From the NCBI GenBank assembly GCA_903821495.1, contig CAIJLM010000263.1, positions 1 through 35,090 on the forward strand: a stretch of DNA of 35,090 nt, in the 5' to 3' direction. The stretch comes from an uncultured Chthonomonas sp. GTDB taxonomy: Bacteria > Armatimonadota > Chthonomonadetes > Chthonomonadales > Chthonomonadaceae. Of this stretch, positions 11,872 to 33,820 are shown piece after piece (the stretch's first letter is position 1; each line of letters begins with the position of its first letter). Both the position numbers and the translations under genes were made by a program. The notes beneath the pieces were generated by a model. It searched no databases and was not told where the DNA came from. It worked only from the letters and a program-made list of their open reading frames with translations.

Positions 11872-14592
11872 CTATAGCGGCTTCATGTCCGCCCAGTTCG
11901 CCCCCGCCTTCGCCTCCGTTTTGAGCCGCACCGTTATCTCCGGCGAAACCCCCTCCATAAGTCGCACAATTTGCGGCGTTATCTCCGCAAGGTAGCCCTC
12001 TTTCACCTCGAAGAGCAGTTCGTCATGCACCTGCAAAATCATCACGCAGTCCGTAATTTTCTCTCGCTTGAGGAAGTCGTGGACGGCTATCATCGCCAGT
12101 TTCATAATGTCGGCGGCGGTTCCTTGAATGGGCATATTGACGCAGGCGCGCTCCGCGAACTGCCGCATACTGAAGTTTGCGCTATCCAGTTCGGGGAAGT
12201 AGCGTCGCCGCCCCATCAGCGTCTGCACGTACTTCTGTTCGTGCGCGAGGGCTTTCGTCTGTTCGATATACTGCTTCACGCTCGGCATACGCTCGAAGTA
12301 GTCGGTTATCCATGCGTTCGCGGTCTGAACATCTACGCCCAGCGTCTGCGCGAGACTAAAGCCGCCCTGCCCGTACAGCACTGCAAAGTTGATGGTCTTC
12401 GCTTGCCGCCTCATGTCCGAAGTGACCTCCGCGAGAGGCGCGCCGAACACCCGTGAAGCCGTCGCCGCATGGATGTCTTCGTCCTGCTTGAAGGCTTCCA
12501 CGAGAGTGGGGTCTTGCGCGATGTGCGCGAGTAGGCGGAGTTCTATCTGCGAGTAGTCGCAGGAGAGCAGAATTTTGCCTTTGGGGGCGGTGAAGGCGCG
12601 GCGAATTTCACGCCCTACTTCGGAGCGCACGGGGATATTCTGCACGTTCGGCTCGGTAGAACTGAGCCGCCCTGTACTTGCCACCGTCTGGTTGAGAGAG
12701 GTGTGTATGCGCCCTGTGACGGGGTTGCGAAGTTTGGGGAGCGCGTCGGCGTAGGTGGATTTGAGTTTGGAGATTTCTCGGTATTCGAGTATCTTTCGCG
12801 CTATCTCATGCTCTCCCGCCAACTGCTCTAGCAAATCCGCGCCCGTCGAGTAGCCCGTGCGTATCTTCTTACCAGTGGGGAGTTGCATCTTCTCAAAGAG
12901 GACAACCTGCAACTGTTTCGGCGAGTTGAGGTTAAATATCTCTCCTGCGAGTTGGTAGACGTGTTGGGCTATCTGTTCGCTCTCTCCCGCCATGCGCGTA
13001 GAGAGTTGCACGAGGTAGTCCATATCCACATAGATTCCCGCCTCCTCAATCGAAGCCAGCGTGGGAACAAGGGGCATATCCACCCGCTCCATAACCTCCG
13101 ACATTTCGAGTTCTTTGAGTTCCGCCTTCATAGGCTCCACCAGCGCGAATATCAGCGCGGCGCGCTTACCGAGCGTTTCAGGCGTGGGTATGGCGACGAC
13201 TTCGAGCGGCACGCCGAGATAGTCGTTGGCGAGGTCGGGGAGAGAGAAGGCGGAGCGCCCCGCCTTGATGAGAAAGCCCGCTATCTCCGTATCAAATACG
13301 AAGGGGGAAACATCAATTCCAGCGCGTTCCAGCAGAATTTCGAGGTATTTGGAGGAGTGCCCTGCCTTCAGAATCGCGGGGTCTTCTAGCATGGAACGAA
13401 CGGCGTTCACACTCGGACGAAACTCCTCGCTCTTCTCCTCGTCAAAGTCGAACAGTCCGCCAATGCTTTCGCTTGCAGGGGCGGAGGTGTCTAGCGGGAG
13501 GTAGTAGGCTTTTTCGTTGGACGCGGAGAAGGCGATTCCGTGCAGAACGCCCTGCATGGCGCTTCCGTCGGCGTGGGGCAGTATCGCTACCTTTTTCGCC
13601 GCAATAACCTCATTCAGCGCGTTGTCTAGCGCGTCTTGCGAGGCGACTATCTCTACTGTCGGGGCGAACTGCGCGGTCAAGGATTGGGAGGACTGTGCGT
13701 TCAACTCCTCTTCGGGCAGAGGAATGCGGCGCAGGAGGCTACGGAATTCGAGGTCTAGGAAGAAGTCGCGTAGCCCGCGCCACGTTTCGGCGGTGGGCGC
13801 GTAGGGTTCGATGTCGTGGTCGAATGGCACATTTATTTCGATGGTGGCGAGACGCTTGGAGGCGCGGGCTTGCTCTTGATTCTCCCTCAGCGATTTTTGC
13901 GCTTTGGGAGGCGTAACCTCATCCAGTTTCTCTATTAACTCCTCAACAGAGTTCCATTTCTGGAGGAGAGCGGTTGCCGTCTTTTCGCCAACGCCAGGAA
14001 CGCCGGGGATGTTGTCGGAGGTGTCTCCTACCAGCGCCTTCCAGTCGGCTATCTGCGAAGGGGTGATTCCGTATCGCTCCACAACGGCGGCGGGGTCGTA
14101 GATTTTAATGTCGGTCACGCCGCGCTGAGTCATTAAAACGTGAACATGGTCGGTCACGAGTTGGAGTTGGTCGGAGTCTCCTGTAAAAATCCCGACTTCG
14201 TAGCCTTTCTCCGCGCCGCGCCGTGCGAGAGTGCCTATCAGGTCGTCGGCTTCGTACCCCGCCATCTCCGCCGAAGCGATACCAAACGCCGCGATAAGGT
14301 CTCTCGCAACGGGCATCTGTAGTTTGAGGTCGGAGGGAGTTTCAGGGCGGTGCGCTTTGTACGCCTCGTACTCCTGACTGCGGAGAGTGGGCGCGTGCGC
14401 GTCCCAACAGACGACCATAGCGGTAGGAGTTTCGGCGCTGAGGACGGTGAAAATCATGTTCGCGAAGCCGTAGAGCGCCCCCGTAGGGCGGTTGTCGCGT
14501 GTGGTAAGCGGGCGACCTCCAAAGAAAGCGCGGAAGAGTAGACTGTAGGCATCTATGAGAACCAAACGCTTGCGGGGCTGTTCATCCGCCAT
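11872..14592 (-). CDS. polA: DNA polymerase I with vestigial proofreading domain
   Basis: A 906-residue family A polymerase for gap filling, Okazaki fragment processing and repair. The N-terminal 5' nuclease (about 1-290) begins LVLIDAYSLLFRAFFG and includes YEADDLIGTLA and GDTSDNIPGVPGVGEKTA. The polymerase domain has motif A LLSCDYSQIELR (near 679), the O-helix RRQAKTINFAVLYGQG (near 727) and motif C QVHDELLFEV (near 855). The middle 3'-5' exonuclease-like domain lacks the catalytic acidic residues: the expected DxE strand reads VAILPHADG, and the ExoII region reads GHSSKYLEIL. Proofreading is therefore probably lost, as in Taq and Bacillus Pol I. The ATG is preceded by AAAGGAG about 11 bases upstream. 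It stands alone between two gaps. Confidence 0.96.
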   Translation of the reverse strand: MADEQPRKRLVLIDAYSLLFRAFFGGRPLTTRDNRPTGALYGFANMIFTVLSAETPTAMVVCWDAHAPTLRSQEYEAYKAHRPETPSDLKLQMPVARDLIAAFGIASAEMAGYEADDLIGTLARRGAEKGYEVGIFTGDSDQLQLVTDHVHVLMTQRGVTDIKIYDPAAVVERYGITPSQIADWKALVGDTSDNIPGVPGVGEKTATALLQKWNSVEELIEKLDEVTPPKAQKSLRENQEQARASKRLATIEINVPFDHDIEPYAPTAETWRGLRDFFLDLEFRSLLRRIPLPEEELNAQSSQSLTAQFAPTVEIVASQDALDNALNEVIAAKKVAILPHADGSAMQGVLHGIAFSASNEKAYYLPLDTSAPASESIGGLFDFDEEKSEEFRPSVNAVRSMLEDPAILKAGHSSKYLEILLERAGIDVSPFVFDTEIAGFLIKAGRSAFSLPDLANDYLGVPLEVVAIPTPETLGKRAALIFALVEPMKAELKELEMSEVMERVDMPLVPTLASIEEAGIYVDMDYLVQLSTRMAGESEQIAQHVYQLAGEIFNLNSPKQLQVVLFEKMQLPTGKKIRTGYSTGADLLEQLAGEHEIARKILEYREISKLKSTYADALPKLRNPVTGRIHTSLNQTVASTGRLSSTEPNVQNIPVRSEVGREIRRAFTAPKGKILLSCDYSQIELRLLAHIAQDPTLVEAFKQDEDIHAATASRVFGAPLAEVTSDMRRQAKTINFAVLYGQGGFSLAQTLGVDVQTANAWITDYFERMPSVKQYIEQTKALAHEQKYVQTLMGRRRYFPELDSANFSMRQFAERACVNMPIQGTAADIMKLAMIAVHDFLKREKITDCVMILQVHDELLFEVKEGYLAEITPQIVRLMEGVSPEITVRLKTEAKAGANWADMKPL

Positions 14593-14645
14593 ATTGAAGG
14601 AAACTCCTTTGGAAAATTGAACGTCTCTCTTAGCCCCTCTCTAAT

Positions 14646-29548: not shown

Positions 29549-30136
29549 CTAAGCATAGAAGGCGATGTTGCGCCATACAGTGCGCCAAACGCCCCCCTCC
29601 TTGCGAAGCATATAGGTTCCAGCGGCTCCATGAGGCGTAGGTCCGAAGTGAAAACGCACTACAACGCGGTTTCCGTCTTGGGAGTAGCCCGGAAGACCGA
29701 CAGCCGCCCAACCGCAGGCTTTGGGATGCCTCTTCTCGAACGTTCGCCACGATGTGTCAAGCGAGGGGACAAGAACAATCTCCGTGTGAACAGGCTTGAA
29801 ATCGGTCAAACTAATGGGAGCGGAGTTGCGTCTCATCAGGCTCTGACGAATATCGACGGTTATCTCTTGCGCTTGGCTCTCCGTCAACTCGCCGTTCATC
29901 TGCTCCTCGTCAAATAGTCCGCTCGTCTTATTCTCCAAAGCGATTTGAGGCTGACCTTTCTCGAAATCGAAGAGGCTACTTCCGTACTCTTTATGCGTCC
30001 GCAAGTCCAGAAGCAGGGTCTCCCAGACCCTCCTATCCTCTTCCGTTACCTGCCGCTCTTTGTCCCACTGTTGCGCTTTAATGCGGTCTCGCTCGCTCTC
30101 TTTCTGGAACAGCGCGTCCCACTCGCGCTGCGCCAC
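29549..30136 (-). pseudogene. Downstream part of the frameshifted ankyrin gene (coiled coil plus C-terminal beta domain)
   Basis: This frame gives up to 195 residues starting from a GTG at 30136. It opens with a charged helical segment (QREWDALFQKESERDRIKAQQWDKERQ), continues with a Glu/Asp-rich stretch, and ends in a compact beta-rich domain: SWRTFEKRHPKACGWAAVGLPGYSQDGNRVVVRFHFG and then GAAGTYMLRKEGGVWRTVW. That end resembles secreted domains of the 'vgFs.dg..Alvyv......aG.gyy.l.k..g.Wk' kind seen in several phyla. There is no signal peptide of its own. The frame lies -1 to the ankyrin gene and is open for 51 bases before the GTG. It is more likely the severed C-terminus of that gene than an independent protein. 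Confidence 0.6.
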
Positions 30137-30900
30137 ATCCCGCTCTTTTTGCAGACTGTAAGACGACGCGCCTTGCCGCCGGCTTTCCTAAGTAGCGCCG
30201 CTTTCTCTACGTTATCTGACATAACGGAGTATTTGTACGGCAAAAGGGCGTATTCTAGCGGAGTGAACCCAAAGTGGCGCGAATTCACGTTCGCCCCGCG
30301 CTTCAGAAGCAGTTTCACGGTTGCCGCATCCGCCGTTTGAACCGCCATGAAGAGCGGCGACTGGCTTCCCTTATTGACATCAGCCCCATTATCTAACAGG
30401 AGTTGAATAGTCTCTCGCTGAGACCCATTGGCGGCGAAAACGAGCGCGGTATCGCCAGAGGCGTTCAAGGCGTTTGGGTTCGCGCCTCGCGCCAAGAAAA
30501 GGCGAACGAGGGCGGTATGATAAGAGGTGACGGCTTCCATCAGAGGCGTGTGGTCGTACTCCCCGCCATCGTTTACATTGGCTCCTTTTTGAAGCAGTAG
30601 ACGCGCCATGCCTATATCGCCCCTCTTCGTCGCAAGCATGAGGGCGGTGTTTCCCAGATAGGGCTTACGAGCGTCGGGAGCGTCGGTGGAGAGCGGTTTG
30701 GGGAGAAGTATCTCTCGCGTATTGGGGTTGGCTCCCTGCCCCAAGAGTCTTTTCGCGCCCTCTTTATCGCCACGCTTCACGGCGGCGAGCAGGGCGGAGT
30801 TCCGCTCTTGCGGCGGCGAGCCGAAAGCCGATAAGGACGATAGGAGAGCGAGCGAAATCAGCCCCACTGCAAGGTATCTTCTCCCTATTTCTCGGCGCAT
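30046..30900 (-). CDS. Exported ankyrin-repeat protein, probably frameshifted near its end
   Basis: The 284-residue product begins with a signal peptide (YLAVGLISLALLSSLSAFGS) after a GAGGAGG ribosome binding site. It then carries five good ankyrin repeats and a sixth degenerate one, e.g. GNTALMLATKRGDIGMARLLLQKGANVN, DHTPLMEAVTSYHTALVRLFLARGANPN, GDTALVFAANGSQRETIQLLLDNGADVN and SPLFMAVQTADAATVKLLLKRGANVN. After the last repeat (LLRKAGGKA) the sequence turns into low-quality Arg/Ser/Lys-rich text to the stop at 30046. A run of five A at 30150-30146 on this strand is a likely slip: one more A would join the repeats to the frame at 29549-30136, giving an exported protein of about 450 residues with ankyrin, coiled-coil and beta-domain parts. 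Confidence 0.85.
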   Translation of the reverse strand: MRREIGRRYLAVGLISLALLSSLSAFGSPPQERNSALLAAVKRGDKEGAKRLLGQGANPNTREILLPKPLSTDAPDARKPYLGNTALMLATKRGDIGMARLLLQKGANVNDGGEYDHTPLMEAVTSYHTALVRLFLARGANPNALNASGDTALVFAANGSQRETIQLLLDNGADVNKGSQSPLFMAVQTADAATVKLLLKRGANVNSRHFGFTPLEYALLPYKYSVMSDNVEKAALLRKAGGKARRLTVCKKSGMWRSASGTRCSRKRASETALKRNSGTKSGR

Positions 30901-30923
30901 GGCATCCTCCTCATCCGATACTA

Positions 30924-31047: not shown

Positions 31048-32394
31048 CTACTCTCTCAAGTTCGTGACGTGGTTATTGGAGACTTTCCATGTCTTTGCGA
31101 AGTTCGGGTCTGACGGCAAGACGATTCCACGAATGTTCGGCGGCGTAGGTCGGTCATCGTAGACCATATTGCCAGAGAAAACGCCGTTCGCGTAGTTTTT
31201 GACATGGATGACCGTCGGGTACTTAGGGTCTACCTTCTCATCGGTGACGCAGTTGCGGAAGATATTATTGGAGATATTCCCTCCTATCACGCTCAACATC
31301 ATCCCTATCTCTGTGGTTCCTTGAATGAGGTTGCTTGTCACAACCTGCCCCTCTCCCTCAACCCATAGCCCGCGTTCTGAGTTCACAATGCGGTTTCCCG
31401 TTACTACGGAGTTCTTGCCATTCACTCTGATTCCCTCGTGCGCGCCAGTGATGACATTTCCTGTTACGGTAATATCGTAACATTTCGGTCCCATGTGAAC
31501 GCCTACAGAGCCTTTAATCGCGGGAGTAATGGAGTCTATGGTGTTGCCTGAGACTACGACGGCGTGCGCCGACTTGGTAATGTCTATCCCGCTATTCGCC
31601 TTCTCAAATGAGTTCCCGACAATAGAGACATCCTCTGCATCGCCGTCCATGGTGTTCGGTTCAAGGTCGACGCTCGCCGCCGATAGGGGGTCGCCCGTGA
31701 AGTAACAGCCCGTGATACGAATGTGTCTCCCGCCCGTCACCGAGATATTGTTGCGCATATTGCGCTCCAACGAGACGCCGGATATCAGAATGTCGGAGGG
31801 GAATATCTTCGCTGTGGCATCGGCTCCCGCAGAGCCGATGTAGATTCCATCGCCAAGAAGACTGTGCTTCTCGCTATTCGTAGGCATATTCTTAATCACC
31901 ATATCTTTAATGGTGATATGGCGCGAACTGCCTCGAATAATAATTCCTCCCAGCGTTCCAGTCGGGTTTTTATCGTATTCGCCATCTATCTGCCCGCCCT
32001 GAATGGTGATATTCGATTTGCTCTTAATCGTAAACAGAGCTTTTCCCTTCTCTATGCTTCGGAACTTGAGCAGGGCGGCGTTTGAGAGCGTTATCTTTTG
32101 ATTGTCCTCAAGGTTGATAGGTCCTGTAATGACATAGTCTCCCTTAGGCACAAAGATATCTGAGGAGGCGTTCACCGCTTTTTGGAAGGCGGCGGTGTCA
32201 TCGGTGTTTCCGTCGCCTTTCGCTCCAAAAGCGCGAACCGATACTGTCTCCATGTTGTTCTCTTTTTGCCCGCGGGCGGAAGCCGGTTGCGGCATCGTCG
32301 CGTAGAGGAAAACTCCCCATAGCGCCAAGCCCGCTAACGATACACGCCCTCCGGTTTGGAGACGACTTTTGTTCAACCATCTTTCAGTGTTCAT
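31048..32394 (-). CDS. Secreted right-handed beta-helix protein (pectate-lyase-3 type)
   Basis: A 448-residue protein with an N-terminal signal or anchor region (GGRVSLAGLALWGVFLYATMPQPASARG). Next comes VSVRAFGAKGDGNTDDTAAFQKAVNA, the hallmark opening of pectate-lyase-3/GH28-type beta-helices and tailspike-like proteins. About ten parallel-helix coils follow with Ile/Val/Asn ladders, e.g. NITIQGGQIDG, HIRITGCYFTG, DVSIVGNSFEKANSGIDI, AVVVSGNTIDSI, YDITVTGNVITGAHEGIRV and SVVTGNRIVNSERGLWV. Proteins of this type bind, cut or epimerise polysaccharides; catalytic residues cannot be assigned from this layout. It is next to an O-antigen-ligase-like gene and a flippase gene, so an extracellular polysaccharide lyase, hydrolase or epimerase role is plausible. 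A 7-bp hairpin lies just upstream at 32420-32436. Confidence 0.88.
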   Translation of the reverse strand: MNTERWLNKSRLQTGGRVSLAGLALWGVFLYATMPQPASARGQKENNMETVSVRAFGAKGDGNTDDTAAFQKAVNASSDIFVPKGDYVITGPINLEDNQKITLSNAALLKFRSIEKGKALFTIKSKSNITIQGGQIDGEYDKNPTGTLGGIIIRGSSRHITIKDMVIKNMPTNSEKHSLLGDGIYIGSAGADATAKIFPSDILISGVSLERNMRNNISVTGGRHIRITGCYFTGDPLSAASVDLEPNTMDGDAEDVSIVGNSFEKANSGIDITKSAHAVVVSGNTIDSITPAIKGSVGVHMGPKCYDITVTGNVITGAHEGIRVNGKNSVVTGNRIVNSERGLWVEGEGQVVTSNLIQGTTEIGMMLSVIGGNISNNIFRNCVTDEKVDPKYPTVIHVKNYANGVFSGNMVYDDRPTPPNIRGIVLPSDPNFAKTWKVSNNHVTNLRE

Positions 32395-32419
32395 ATCGCT
32401 ACCTTATGCATCTTTCTGG

Positions 32420-32436
32420 AAGAGAGGGTCTCTCTT
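32420..32436. other. Short hairpin upstream of the beta-helix gene
   Basis: AAGAGAG and CTCTCTT form a perfect 7-bp stem around a three-base loop, in the 55-base gap between the polymerase-like and beta-helix genes. There is no U-tract, so at most it attenuates or stabilises the mRNA. Confidence 0.3.
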
Positions 32437-32449
32437 CGTTTTCTACAGT

Positions 32450-33820
32450 CTATTCGTTAGTTGTAACGCTCGCTAAGGAGGTATCAGGAGGGGGCGGCAA
32501 GCGCTTTCGCTTTGTTTTTTCCCCTGTCAATAGGTTTGGGATATGGAAGACAAAAGCGACCATCAGAACGCCGTGCAGGTGAATCAGGAGGTTGTGCCAT
32601 GTCGCCGCCACTACCATGATATAGACTCCATAGCGCGTCACATAGTATCTTTCGTCTGGGTCTGGAATAACTCTCCAAGACCTTGCTAGGGCGGAAATCA
32701 TAATCCCTATGAAGATAAGCATATTTATCCAACCGATTTCGCCAAACAGCAGAACGTAGGTGTTGTGCGCCCCCAAGTACACGCCTGGAGATACCTGTGT
32801 AACTCCCTCCTTAAATTGAAAAAACCCTTTACCATACCAAGGTTGTGAATACGCTTTCGTCAAAGAGTCGGACAAAACGCCGAATCGCCCCTTGTACCCC
32901 TGCCTCTGGTCGGAGACATTTTGGAATCTCTGAAATTTGGGGTTATGTTGTAGCGTATCGAGGTTGACGAGAATCAGCGTCATTAATATGGATATCGCCA
33001 CCCCTATTTTTGCGAACGTCGTGGCGACTCGCCTGTAGTCTCCCGCCTGCCACTGGAGTATGGCTCGCCGGGCGACGGCGAAAATAAGAGCGAGTATTAA
33101 CATATACTGCGAAGTGCGGCAGAAAGTTAAATAGATTGCTACTAAACCGAATATTCGCGAGAAAAACGCGAGGCGCGGATTCGCCCATACCGAAAAATAG
33201 AGGCAACCCACGAAGACGTAGCTCGCGGCGTTGGGGTTCGTGAAGATACCGGAATAGCGTCCTACGTTTTCCAGATTGAGGAGAGATTTTTTGTCTAGCA
33301 CGAGAAAGGCGTAGTACTGTGGATAGCGATAGCCCAGTAAAGAGATGAGAGTGTTCAGAATCAAGCCTATCTGAAGACCGTTCGCAAATATCCTCAGCTC
33401 TTTTTTGCCTGCCAGCGCCGCCGCGCAGGCGTAAACAGTCACCATTTCGCGAGCGTAGCTACGAAACGCCTCAAACAGCATCGGAGCCTTATCCTCTAAA
33501 ACCAGAATGCCCCAAAGGTGATAGAGTGTCAGAAAGCCGGTTAGTATATGAATATACCGCACTCTCCACCAGAACGTTCTATCTCTAATCATACATATAT
33601 ACAGCCCGATGATGTACGTGGCGAGATAGCCGTAGATGATGATAAGAGTGCGTCCGCCAATCCACTCCAAAAACCCCGTAAACACGAATGCGAGTACAAA
33701 GCAGAACAGGATGCGAATCCGTTCTACGATATTCGCGCCCCAGTAGTAGCGGTAGAGGCGTGAGAATGGGTTTTGCGTGTAGCGATGCGGTATAGGGCTA
33801 TGGAGGGTTTCTGTACTCAT
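32450..33820 (-). CDS. O-antigen ligase / polysaccharide polymerase family membrane protein
   Basis: A 456-residue integral membrane protein with about ten to twelve helices (e.g. ILFCFVLAFVFTGFLEWIG, TLIIIYGYLATYIIGLYICM, LILALIFAVA, VAISILMTLILVNLD, INMLIFIGIMISALA, VYIMVVAATWHNLLIHLHG). A large periplasmic loop before the last helices contains RFGVLSDSLTKAYSQPWYGKGFFQF and then GAHNTYVLLFGEIGWINMLIF. The 'G.....HN.yl....E.G..g....' segment is the Wzy_C signature of WaaL ligases and Wzy polymerases. YSGIFTNPNAAS matches the family's second conserved loop. It probably polymerises exopolysaccharide repeat units or ligates them to a carrier in the inner membrane. It lies 62 bases after the flippase gene. 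Confidence 0.85.
   Translation of the reverse strand: MSTETLHSPIPHRYTQNPFSRLYRYYWGANIVERIRILFCFVLAFVFTGFLEWIGGRTLIIIYGYLATYIIGLYICMIRDRTFWWRVRYIHILTGFLTLYHLWGILVLEDKAPMLFEAFRSYAREMVTVYACAAALAGKKELRIFANGLQIGLILNTLISLLGYRYPQYYAFLVLDKKSLLNLENVGRYSGIFTNPNAASYVFVGCLYFSVWANPRLAFFSRIFGLVAIYLTFCRTSQYMLILALIFAVARRAILQWQAGDYRRVATTFAKIGVAISILMTLILVNLDTLQHNPKFQRFQNVSDQRQGYKGRFGVLSDSLTKAYSQPWYGKGFFQFKEGVTQVSPGVYLGAHNTYVLLFGEIGWINMLIFIGIMISALARSWRVIPDPDERYYVTRYGVYIMVVAATWHNLLIHLHGVLMVAFVFHIPNLLTGEKTKRKRLPPPPDTSLASVTTNE

What the first reader, a model, noticed from the sequence alone, without database searches (positions are those of the whole stretch)
29549..30900. Ankyrin gene split by a -1 frameshift at an A5 run
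Ankyrin repeats end cleanly at LLRKAGGKA and then turn to low-quality sequence, while the -1 frame carries a well-formed coiled coil and beta domain without a signal peptide or good start. Adding one A to the A5 tract at 30150-30146 would fuse both into one exported protein. The tract (TGC AAA AAG in the ankyrin frame) also allows programmed -1 slippage to be considered.
Basis: partly seen in the sequence, partly recalled or inferred. Interest (0 to 1): 0.55.

Follow-up and report, generated by a model that had tools for sequence, protein, structure and literature searches.

The report
Ankyrin gene broken by a frameshift
Two neighbouring reading frames in an uncultured bacterium are the two halves of one exported ankyrin-repeat protein, which related bacteria encode in one unbroken gene; the break looks like an ordinary small mutation or sequence error, not a regulated switch.

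Summary
On the minus strand, an exported-type ankyrin ORF (30900-30046) and a second ORF in the -1 frame (30136-29549, open back to 30187) are two halves of one gene. Six uninterrupted single-ORF relatives in five genomes of Fimbriimonadaceae carry the whole architecture: leader, ankyrin part, variable linker, C-terminal domain. Their profile matches ORF1 over model positions 20-258 and ORF2 over 230-435. The ORF1 tail is not coding-like; the overlapping -1 frame is. The frame change lies between 30187 and 30049, most likely about 30177-30139. The A5 run (30150-30146) is inside, but neither codon usage nor alignment singles it out. Programmed -1 slippage is not supported: 0 of 6 fused relatives is split, and there is no slippery heptamer, no upstream SD-like stimulator, and a downstream hairpin of rank only 24 of 63 among the genome's own AAA-AAG sites. 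Best reading: an accidental indel, either recent mutation or consensus error, in an accessory gene (no ORF2 match in 16 of 16 other genomes of the family). Reads would decide. Low interest; the unnamed protein family is the only mildly new item.

The parts
30046..30900 (-). ORF1: hydrophobic leader, ankyrin repeats, then an out-of-frame tail (about the last 30-42 residues)
30906..30912 (-). Shine-Dalgarno-like GAGGAGG, 5 nt before the ORF1 ATG
   Evidence: sequence; SD motif test
30817..30900 (-). signal-peptide-like N-terminus (arginine-rich, then hydrophobic run); judged by eye, no predictor run
   Evidence: sequence
30166..30810 (-). ankyrin-repeat region, ORF1 residues 31-245
   Evidence: Pfam; profile of six fused relatives
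30139..30177 (-). interval that most likely contains the frame change (hard bounds 30187 and 30049 for a single change; codon usage alone would allow down to about 30124)
   Evidence: codon model; frame-switch alignment to six relatives; upstream stop of the -1 frame
30146..30150 (-).
29549..30187 (-). ORF2 open frame (first possible start GTG at 30136): linker with predicted helices plus C-terminal domain
29558..29710 (-). most conserved C-terminal part, predicted beta strands (model of low confidence)
   Evidence: alignments; structure (mean pLDDT 44.1)

Best explanation
One gene for an exported ankyrin-repeat protein with a conserved C-terminal domain has lost its reading frame through a small accidental indel in the variable linker. 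As written, translation makes the leader and ankyrin repeats followed by a short nonsense tail, and the C-terminal domain is not made as part of the exported product. Both halves keep normal codon usage and each aligns to the family without a further frame break, so the change is either recent in the sampled population or an error in the assembled consensus. Shown: the two halves match consecutive parts of one family of single-ORF proteins. Inferred: the loss of function, the recency, and that it is accidental.
For: Six uninterrupted relatives: L047 (G096), L048 and L064 (G100), L049 (G105), L050 (G095), L052 (G129). Their profile matches ORF1 at model 20-258 (E 4e-62) and ORF2 at 230-435 (E 1.1e-48). 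Coding signal switches frame between about 30178 and 30124. Summed alignment scores are highest at 30172-30145. The ORF1 tail alone does not match the family (E 0.34). ORF2 has no leader by eye and no core SD motif at its first start codon; ORF1 has both (for SD). No ORF2 match in 16 of 16 other genomes of the same family, genus included, which fits an accessory gene.
Against: No reads were available, so mutation and consensus error cannot be separated. The relatives are only about 30-42% identical to either ORF, so the former frame of this very copy is inferred rather than seen. Against an error: other such splits are rare in this genome (1 further case in 557 kb, which looks like a chimeric join). 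Against a real mutation: Antonov et al. 2013 (PMC3711429, passages) expect homology-validated singletons to be sequencing errors rather than genuine indels.
Confidence: 0.9

Rival explanations
1. Sub-case of the best reading: the frame change is not in the organism but is a consensus or assembly error.
For: The genome is a 733-contig draft. Both halves look preserved. None of the six fused relatives is split. Homology-validated singleton frame transitions are expected to be sequencing errors (PMC3711429, passages). One apparent chimeric join was found in another contig (L098).
Against: Long tail-overlap splits are not more frequent here (2 in 557,470 bases) than in a single-contig genome of the same family (2 in 400,000 bases) (the scan misses splits with short tails); A5 is a short run.
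Confidence: 0.42
2. Programmed -1 ribosomal slippage at C AAA AAG makes some full-length protein besides the ankyrin-only form.
For: An A_AA.G tetramer is present in the ORF1 frame and heads the tetramer hierarchy in E. coli (PMC4066793, passages). The site lies inside the allowed interval.
Against: No X_XX.Z_ZZ.N heptamer between 30190 and 30046 (run list). Tetramers need a strong stimulator (PMC4066793). No SD-like element 6-17 nt upstream, and the best hairpin 4-10 nt downstream ranks 24 of 63 among own-genome AAA-AAG sites. Local folding z-scores are only -0.70 to -1.40. In-frame CAAAAAG occurs 30 times in 331 own-genome ORFs. 0 of 6 fused relatives is split.
Confidence: 0.04
3. Two separate proteins, the second started by re-initiation at GTG 30136 (translational coupling or a genuine gene fission).
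For: A purine stretch AAAGAG lies 6 nt before the GTG. Free-standing relatives of the C-terminal domain exist (L044, L051, L053, Rhodanobacter L083).
Against: These four free-standing relatives have hydrophobic leaders of their own (by eye; for L051 and L053 behind an internal ATG); ORF2 has none. No core SD motif (found at 190 of 320 first starts of long ORFs, 1618 of 6671 internal start-like codons, present at ORF1, absent at ORF2). The start lies about 90 nt upstream of the ORF1 stop, not within 10 nt as in the coupling criterion of PMC3711429 (section 11). The ORF1 tail is not coding-like.
Confidence: 0.04
4. Phase variation: a reversible on/off switch by slipped-strand mispairing at the A5 run.
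For: A homopolymer in a gene for an exported protein.
Against: Five A is below the 7-nt minimum used in PMC3711429 (section 11). No tandem repeat lies near the site. 4.1% of 40-nt windows in ordinary genes hold an A5 run.
Confidence: 0.02

Closest known systems
Uncharacterised single-ORF ankyrin + C-terminal-domain proteins of Fimbriimonadaceae (e.g. L047/L082, MAG Fimbriimonadaceae bacterium isolate SJ693, contig JADZBW010000364.1)
   Same: Leader, ankyrin part with an N.REIL..KP stretch, AGGK motif, linker, and the C-terminal PGYSxDG...FGPTPHGAAGTY...W block; 38% identity to ORF1 and 42% to ORF2.
   Different: The relatives have one open frame; the window copy is split in the linker.
Free-standing proteins with only the C-terminal domain (L044 in the same order; L051, L053; Rhodanobacter sp. 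C03 L083)
   Same: Conserved C-terminal block (for L044 34% over 50 residues).
   Different: Own leader by eye and no ankyrin part in the same ORF.
Programmed -1 frameshift genes (dnaX, IS3-type transposases)
   Same: AAA-AAG in the ORF1 frame near the frame change.
   Different: No heptamer, no stimulator found, no conserved split.

Membership tests
Frame-disrupted copy of the ankyrin + C-terminal-domain family | Both halves match consecutive parts of one single-ORF family | tested here: met
   ORF1 model 20-258, ORF2 model 230-435
Frame-disrupted copy of the ankyrin + C-terminal-domain family | Relatives are uninterrupted | tested here: met
   6 of 6 ankyrin-fused relatives found among 291 phylum genomes are single ORFs
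Frame-disrupted copy of the ankyrin + C-terminal-domain family | The indel is present in the organism's DNA | not testable with these tools
   no reads
Programmed -1 ribosomal frameshifting | X_XX.Z_ZZ.N heptamer or Z_ZZ.N tetramer at the frame change | tested here: inconclusive
   A_AA.G tetramer present, heptamer absent (motif definition PMC4066793)
Programmed -1 ribosomal frameshifting | Stimulator: SD-like 6-17 nt upstream or a strong hairpin 4-10 nt downstream | tested here: not met
   no SD-like element (21 of 63 sites have one); best hairpin -16.7 kcal/mol, rank 24 of 63
Programmed -1 ribosomal frameshifting | Split and site conserved among relatives | tested here: not met
   0 of 6 fused relatives split
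Programmed -1 ribosomal frameshifting | Full-length product made from the native sequence | not testable with these tools
   needs reporter or proteomics
Translationally coupled gene pair | Downstream start within about 10 nt of the upstream stop | tested here: not met
   GTG 30136 against a stop codon at 30048-30046
Phase-variable gene | Repeat or homopolymer of at least 7 nt at the frame change | tested here: not met
   longest run is A5; no tandem repeat there

The most novel reading that the evidence does not exclude
The split is real in the organism and leaky -1 slippage on the A_AA.G tetramer (or re-initiation at GTG 30136) makes both an ankyrin-only and a full-length exported protein from one gene, a lineage-specific recoding event in an Armatimonadota bacterium.
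Probability: 0.04. Interest if true: 0.45.

Novelty: new member of a known kind. Interest (0 to 1): 0.12.

Why it matters
Mainly for annotation: the two ORFs would probably be called as two separate genes, whereas they are one gene of an unnamed exported ankyrin family whose C-terminal domain has no significant Pfam or NCBIfam match in the searches run here. If the split were shown to be programmed, it would be an unusual recoding case outside mobile elements, but nothing found here supports that.

Tried and rejected
Programmed slippage: tested by motif, upstream SD, downstream hairpin against the genome's own AAA-AAG sites, and conservation; rejected as unsupported. The hairpin scan used hairpins of 17-80 nt, shorter than the 140-nt limit in PMC4066793. 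Phase variation: A5 too short, no repeat. Translational coupling: long overlap and no core SD. Same-genus orthologs to date the break: none found; the ankyrin hits in G001-G003 are repeat-level, best 38% identity over query residues 83-220. ORF2 relatives in plasmids (tblastn) and viral contigs (pattern scans): none found. The phage and E. coli collections were not searched. Naming the C-terminal domain: no significant match in Pfam (one of nine members had a weak hit, E 0.024), NCBIfam or PHROGs (weak hit, E 0.087). In the PDB, the best sequence hits were E 1.3 and, by profile, two coat proteins (E 0.0057 and 0.22) and a REM1.1 chain (E 1.3), taken as chance. Both structure models are poor for the C-terminal domain, so no fold search was made. 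The pattern scan of genome contigs with three sequences found only the SJ693 protein and one Rhodanobacter protein (the first try found none); it did not report the other fused relatives, so its sensitivity is low.

Limits: the six relatives are not independent (five genomes, one family by the tool's label f14). Their ankyrin parts were recognised by alignment and profile match to ORF1, not by a Pfam scan of each. Score differences between switch points are a few half-bits per sequence. In one search, one of the 15 non-window matches (G104, L079) was not read. Training left out ORFs overlapping the two studied here; training did not. The split scan needs a tail overlap of at least 45 nt and fixed score thresholds, so it misses many possible indels.

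Full report
What is there. On the minus strand, ORF1 (30900-30046, 284 aa) starts with ATG behind a GAGGAGG, has a signal-peptide-like N-terminus by eye, and carries ankyrin repeats. ORF2 (30136-29549, 195 aa from GTG; open back to 30187) lies in the -1 frame and overlaps ORF1 by 91 nt. ORF2 has no Pfam match at E <= 0.1. The window lies on a contig of a 5.37-Mb, 733-contig draft genome. The phylum is inferred: one same-phylum genome without a name (G096) holds the protein that one search finds at 100% identity in a record titled Fimbriimonadaceae bacterium isolate SJ693, so the window is from Armatimonadota. G100 (one contig, 5.2 Mb) may be Fimbriimonas ginsengisoli, whose genome is given as 5.23 Mb in the abstract of PMC4072686; G005 (one contig, 3.44 Mb) may be Chthonomonas calidirosea, a name recalled from no call. 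Neither was tested.

Coding signal. A codon model from 111 own-genome ORFs gives 34 codons of the ORF1 tail -2.7 and the same stretch in the ORF2 frame +9.8; in-frame pieces have median 5.7 (5th percentile 0.5), open out-of-frame pieces medians -4.8 and -4.3. Position-wise G+C shows the same switch. The best single switch point is 30169, with weight spread from 30178 to 30124; the TGC, AAA and AAG codons at the A5 get 0.023, 0.042 and 0.037.

Relatives. With ORF2 as query, 1 of 60 other genomes has a weak match (G028), and 0 of the 16 other genomes of the same family, genus included. A two-row profile (A1) found matches in 19 of 291 phylum genomes, own genome included, at E <= 0.01, and a nine-row profile (A2) in 14 of 291 at E <= 0.001. 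Reading the ORFs showed six uninterrupted proteins with leader, ankyrin part, AGGK/AGAK-type junction, variable linker and the C-terminal domain: L047, L048, L049, L050, L052, L064, from five genomes (G100 has two). L051, L053 and (more weakly) L044 are free-standing proteins with leaders by eye. In G028 (L044) an ankyrin ORF, a 173-aa ORF and the C-terminal-domain ORF lie in a row as separate genes. The remaining six matches are weak and cover 42-160 of 202 profile positions; one of them (L079) was not read. No other split copy was seen among those read.

Same gene. A profile of the six fused proteins matches ORF1 over 20-258 (E 4e-62) and ORF2 over 230-435 (E 1.1e-48). ORF1 cut at residue 245 keeps 192 of 198 bits, and the tail alone does not match (E 0.34). 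So the two ORFs are consecutive parts of one gene. A frame-switch alignment against each relative puts the change most likely within about 30177-30139; totals are 3249 at 30166, 3243 at 30154, 3240 at 30172 and 3230 at the A5 codons. By single relatives, L047 ranks the A5 codons first by 2 points, L049 peaks at 30154 with the A5 codons 1 point lower, and the other four favour 30172 or 30166. The A5 is the longest homopolymer in the stretch, and 4.1% of 40-nt windows in ordinary genes have one, so it is a plausible but unproven site.

Is it programmed? Escherichia coli tests put A_AA.G first among tetramers, but only with a strong stimulator (PMC4066793, passages read). Here there is no heptamer and no SD-like element 6-17 nt upstream (21 of 63 AAA-AAG sites have one), and the best hairpin 4-10 nt downstream ranks 24 of 63. 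Local folding is not unusual (z -0.70 to -1.40). CAAAAAG in frame occurs 30 times in 331 own-genome ORFs. By the scheme of Antonov et al. 2013 (PMC3711429; outline, passages, sections 10 and 11 read), programmed cases form clusters of five or more with a conserved site, coupling was scored with start and stop within 10 nt, and phase variation was screened with runs of at least 7 nt. None of these is met; a homology-validated singleton is read as an error or a recent indel.

Mutation or error? A scan for long tail-overlap splits found 2 in 557,470 own-genome bases (81 sequences) and 2 in 400,000 bases of the single-contig genome G005. The other own-genome case is a glycoside hydrolase 3 running into an M3 peptidase in mid-domain, which looks like a chimeric join. 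The assembly is therefore not obviously indel-ridden, but an isolated error cannot be excluded. Without reads I put real recent mutation and consensus error at about equal odds.

Function. By architecture, the intact relatives are exported proteins with an ankyrin part, of a kind that usually binds other proteins (general knowledge), and a small C-terminal domain of unknown role, which also occurs alone in secreted-type proteins, for example in Rhodanobacter. Structure prediction is good for the ankyrin part only. The likely consequence of the split is loss of the C-terminal domain from the exported product. That is inference.

Noticed in passing
L098 (G000:C114) about 14424-14623: A glycoside hydrolase family 3 ORF runs into the middle of a peptidase family M3 ORF in another frame; both domains are cut, which looks like a chimeric contig join.
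   Followed up: partly
L047, L048, L049, L050, L052, L064: Unnamed family of exported-type ankyrin + C-terminal-domain proteins with no Pfam or NCBIfam name found for the C-terminal domain; G100 holds two paralogs.
   Followed up: partly
L044 290-2139: In a same-order genome (G028) an ankyrin ORF, a 173-aa ORF and a free-standing C-terminal-domain ORF, each with a hydrophobic leader by eye, lie in a row on one strand.
   Followed up: partly
G000, whole genome: 33 ankyrin-type matching places to ORF1 in this one genome, itself included and sometimes several per protein: a large ankyrin repertoire.
   Followed up: no
window 31048-33820: Upstream neighbours on the same strand are a right-handed beta-helix/pectate-lyase-like protein (Pfam) and a multi-spanning membrane protein that looks like an O-antigen ligase (by eye), suggesting an exopolysaccharide locus.
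   Followed up: no
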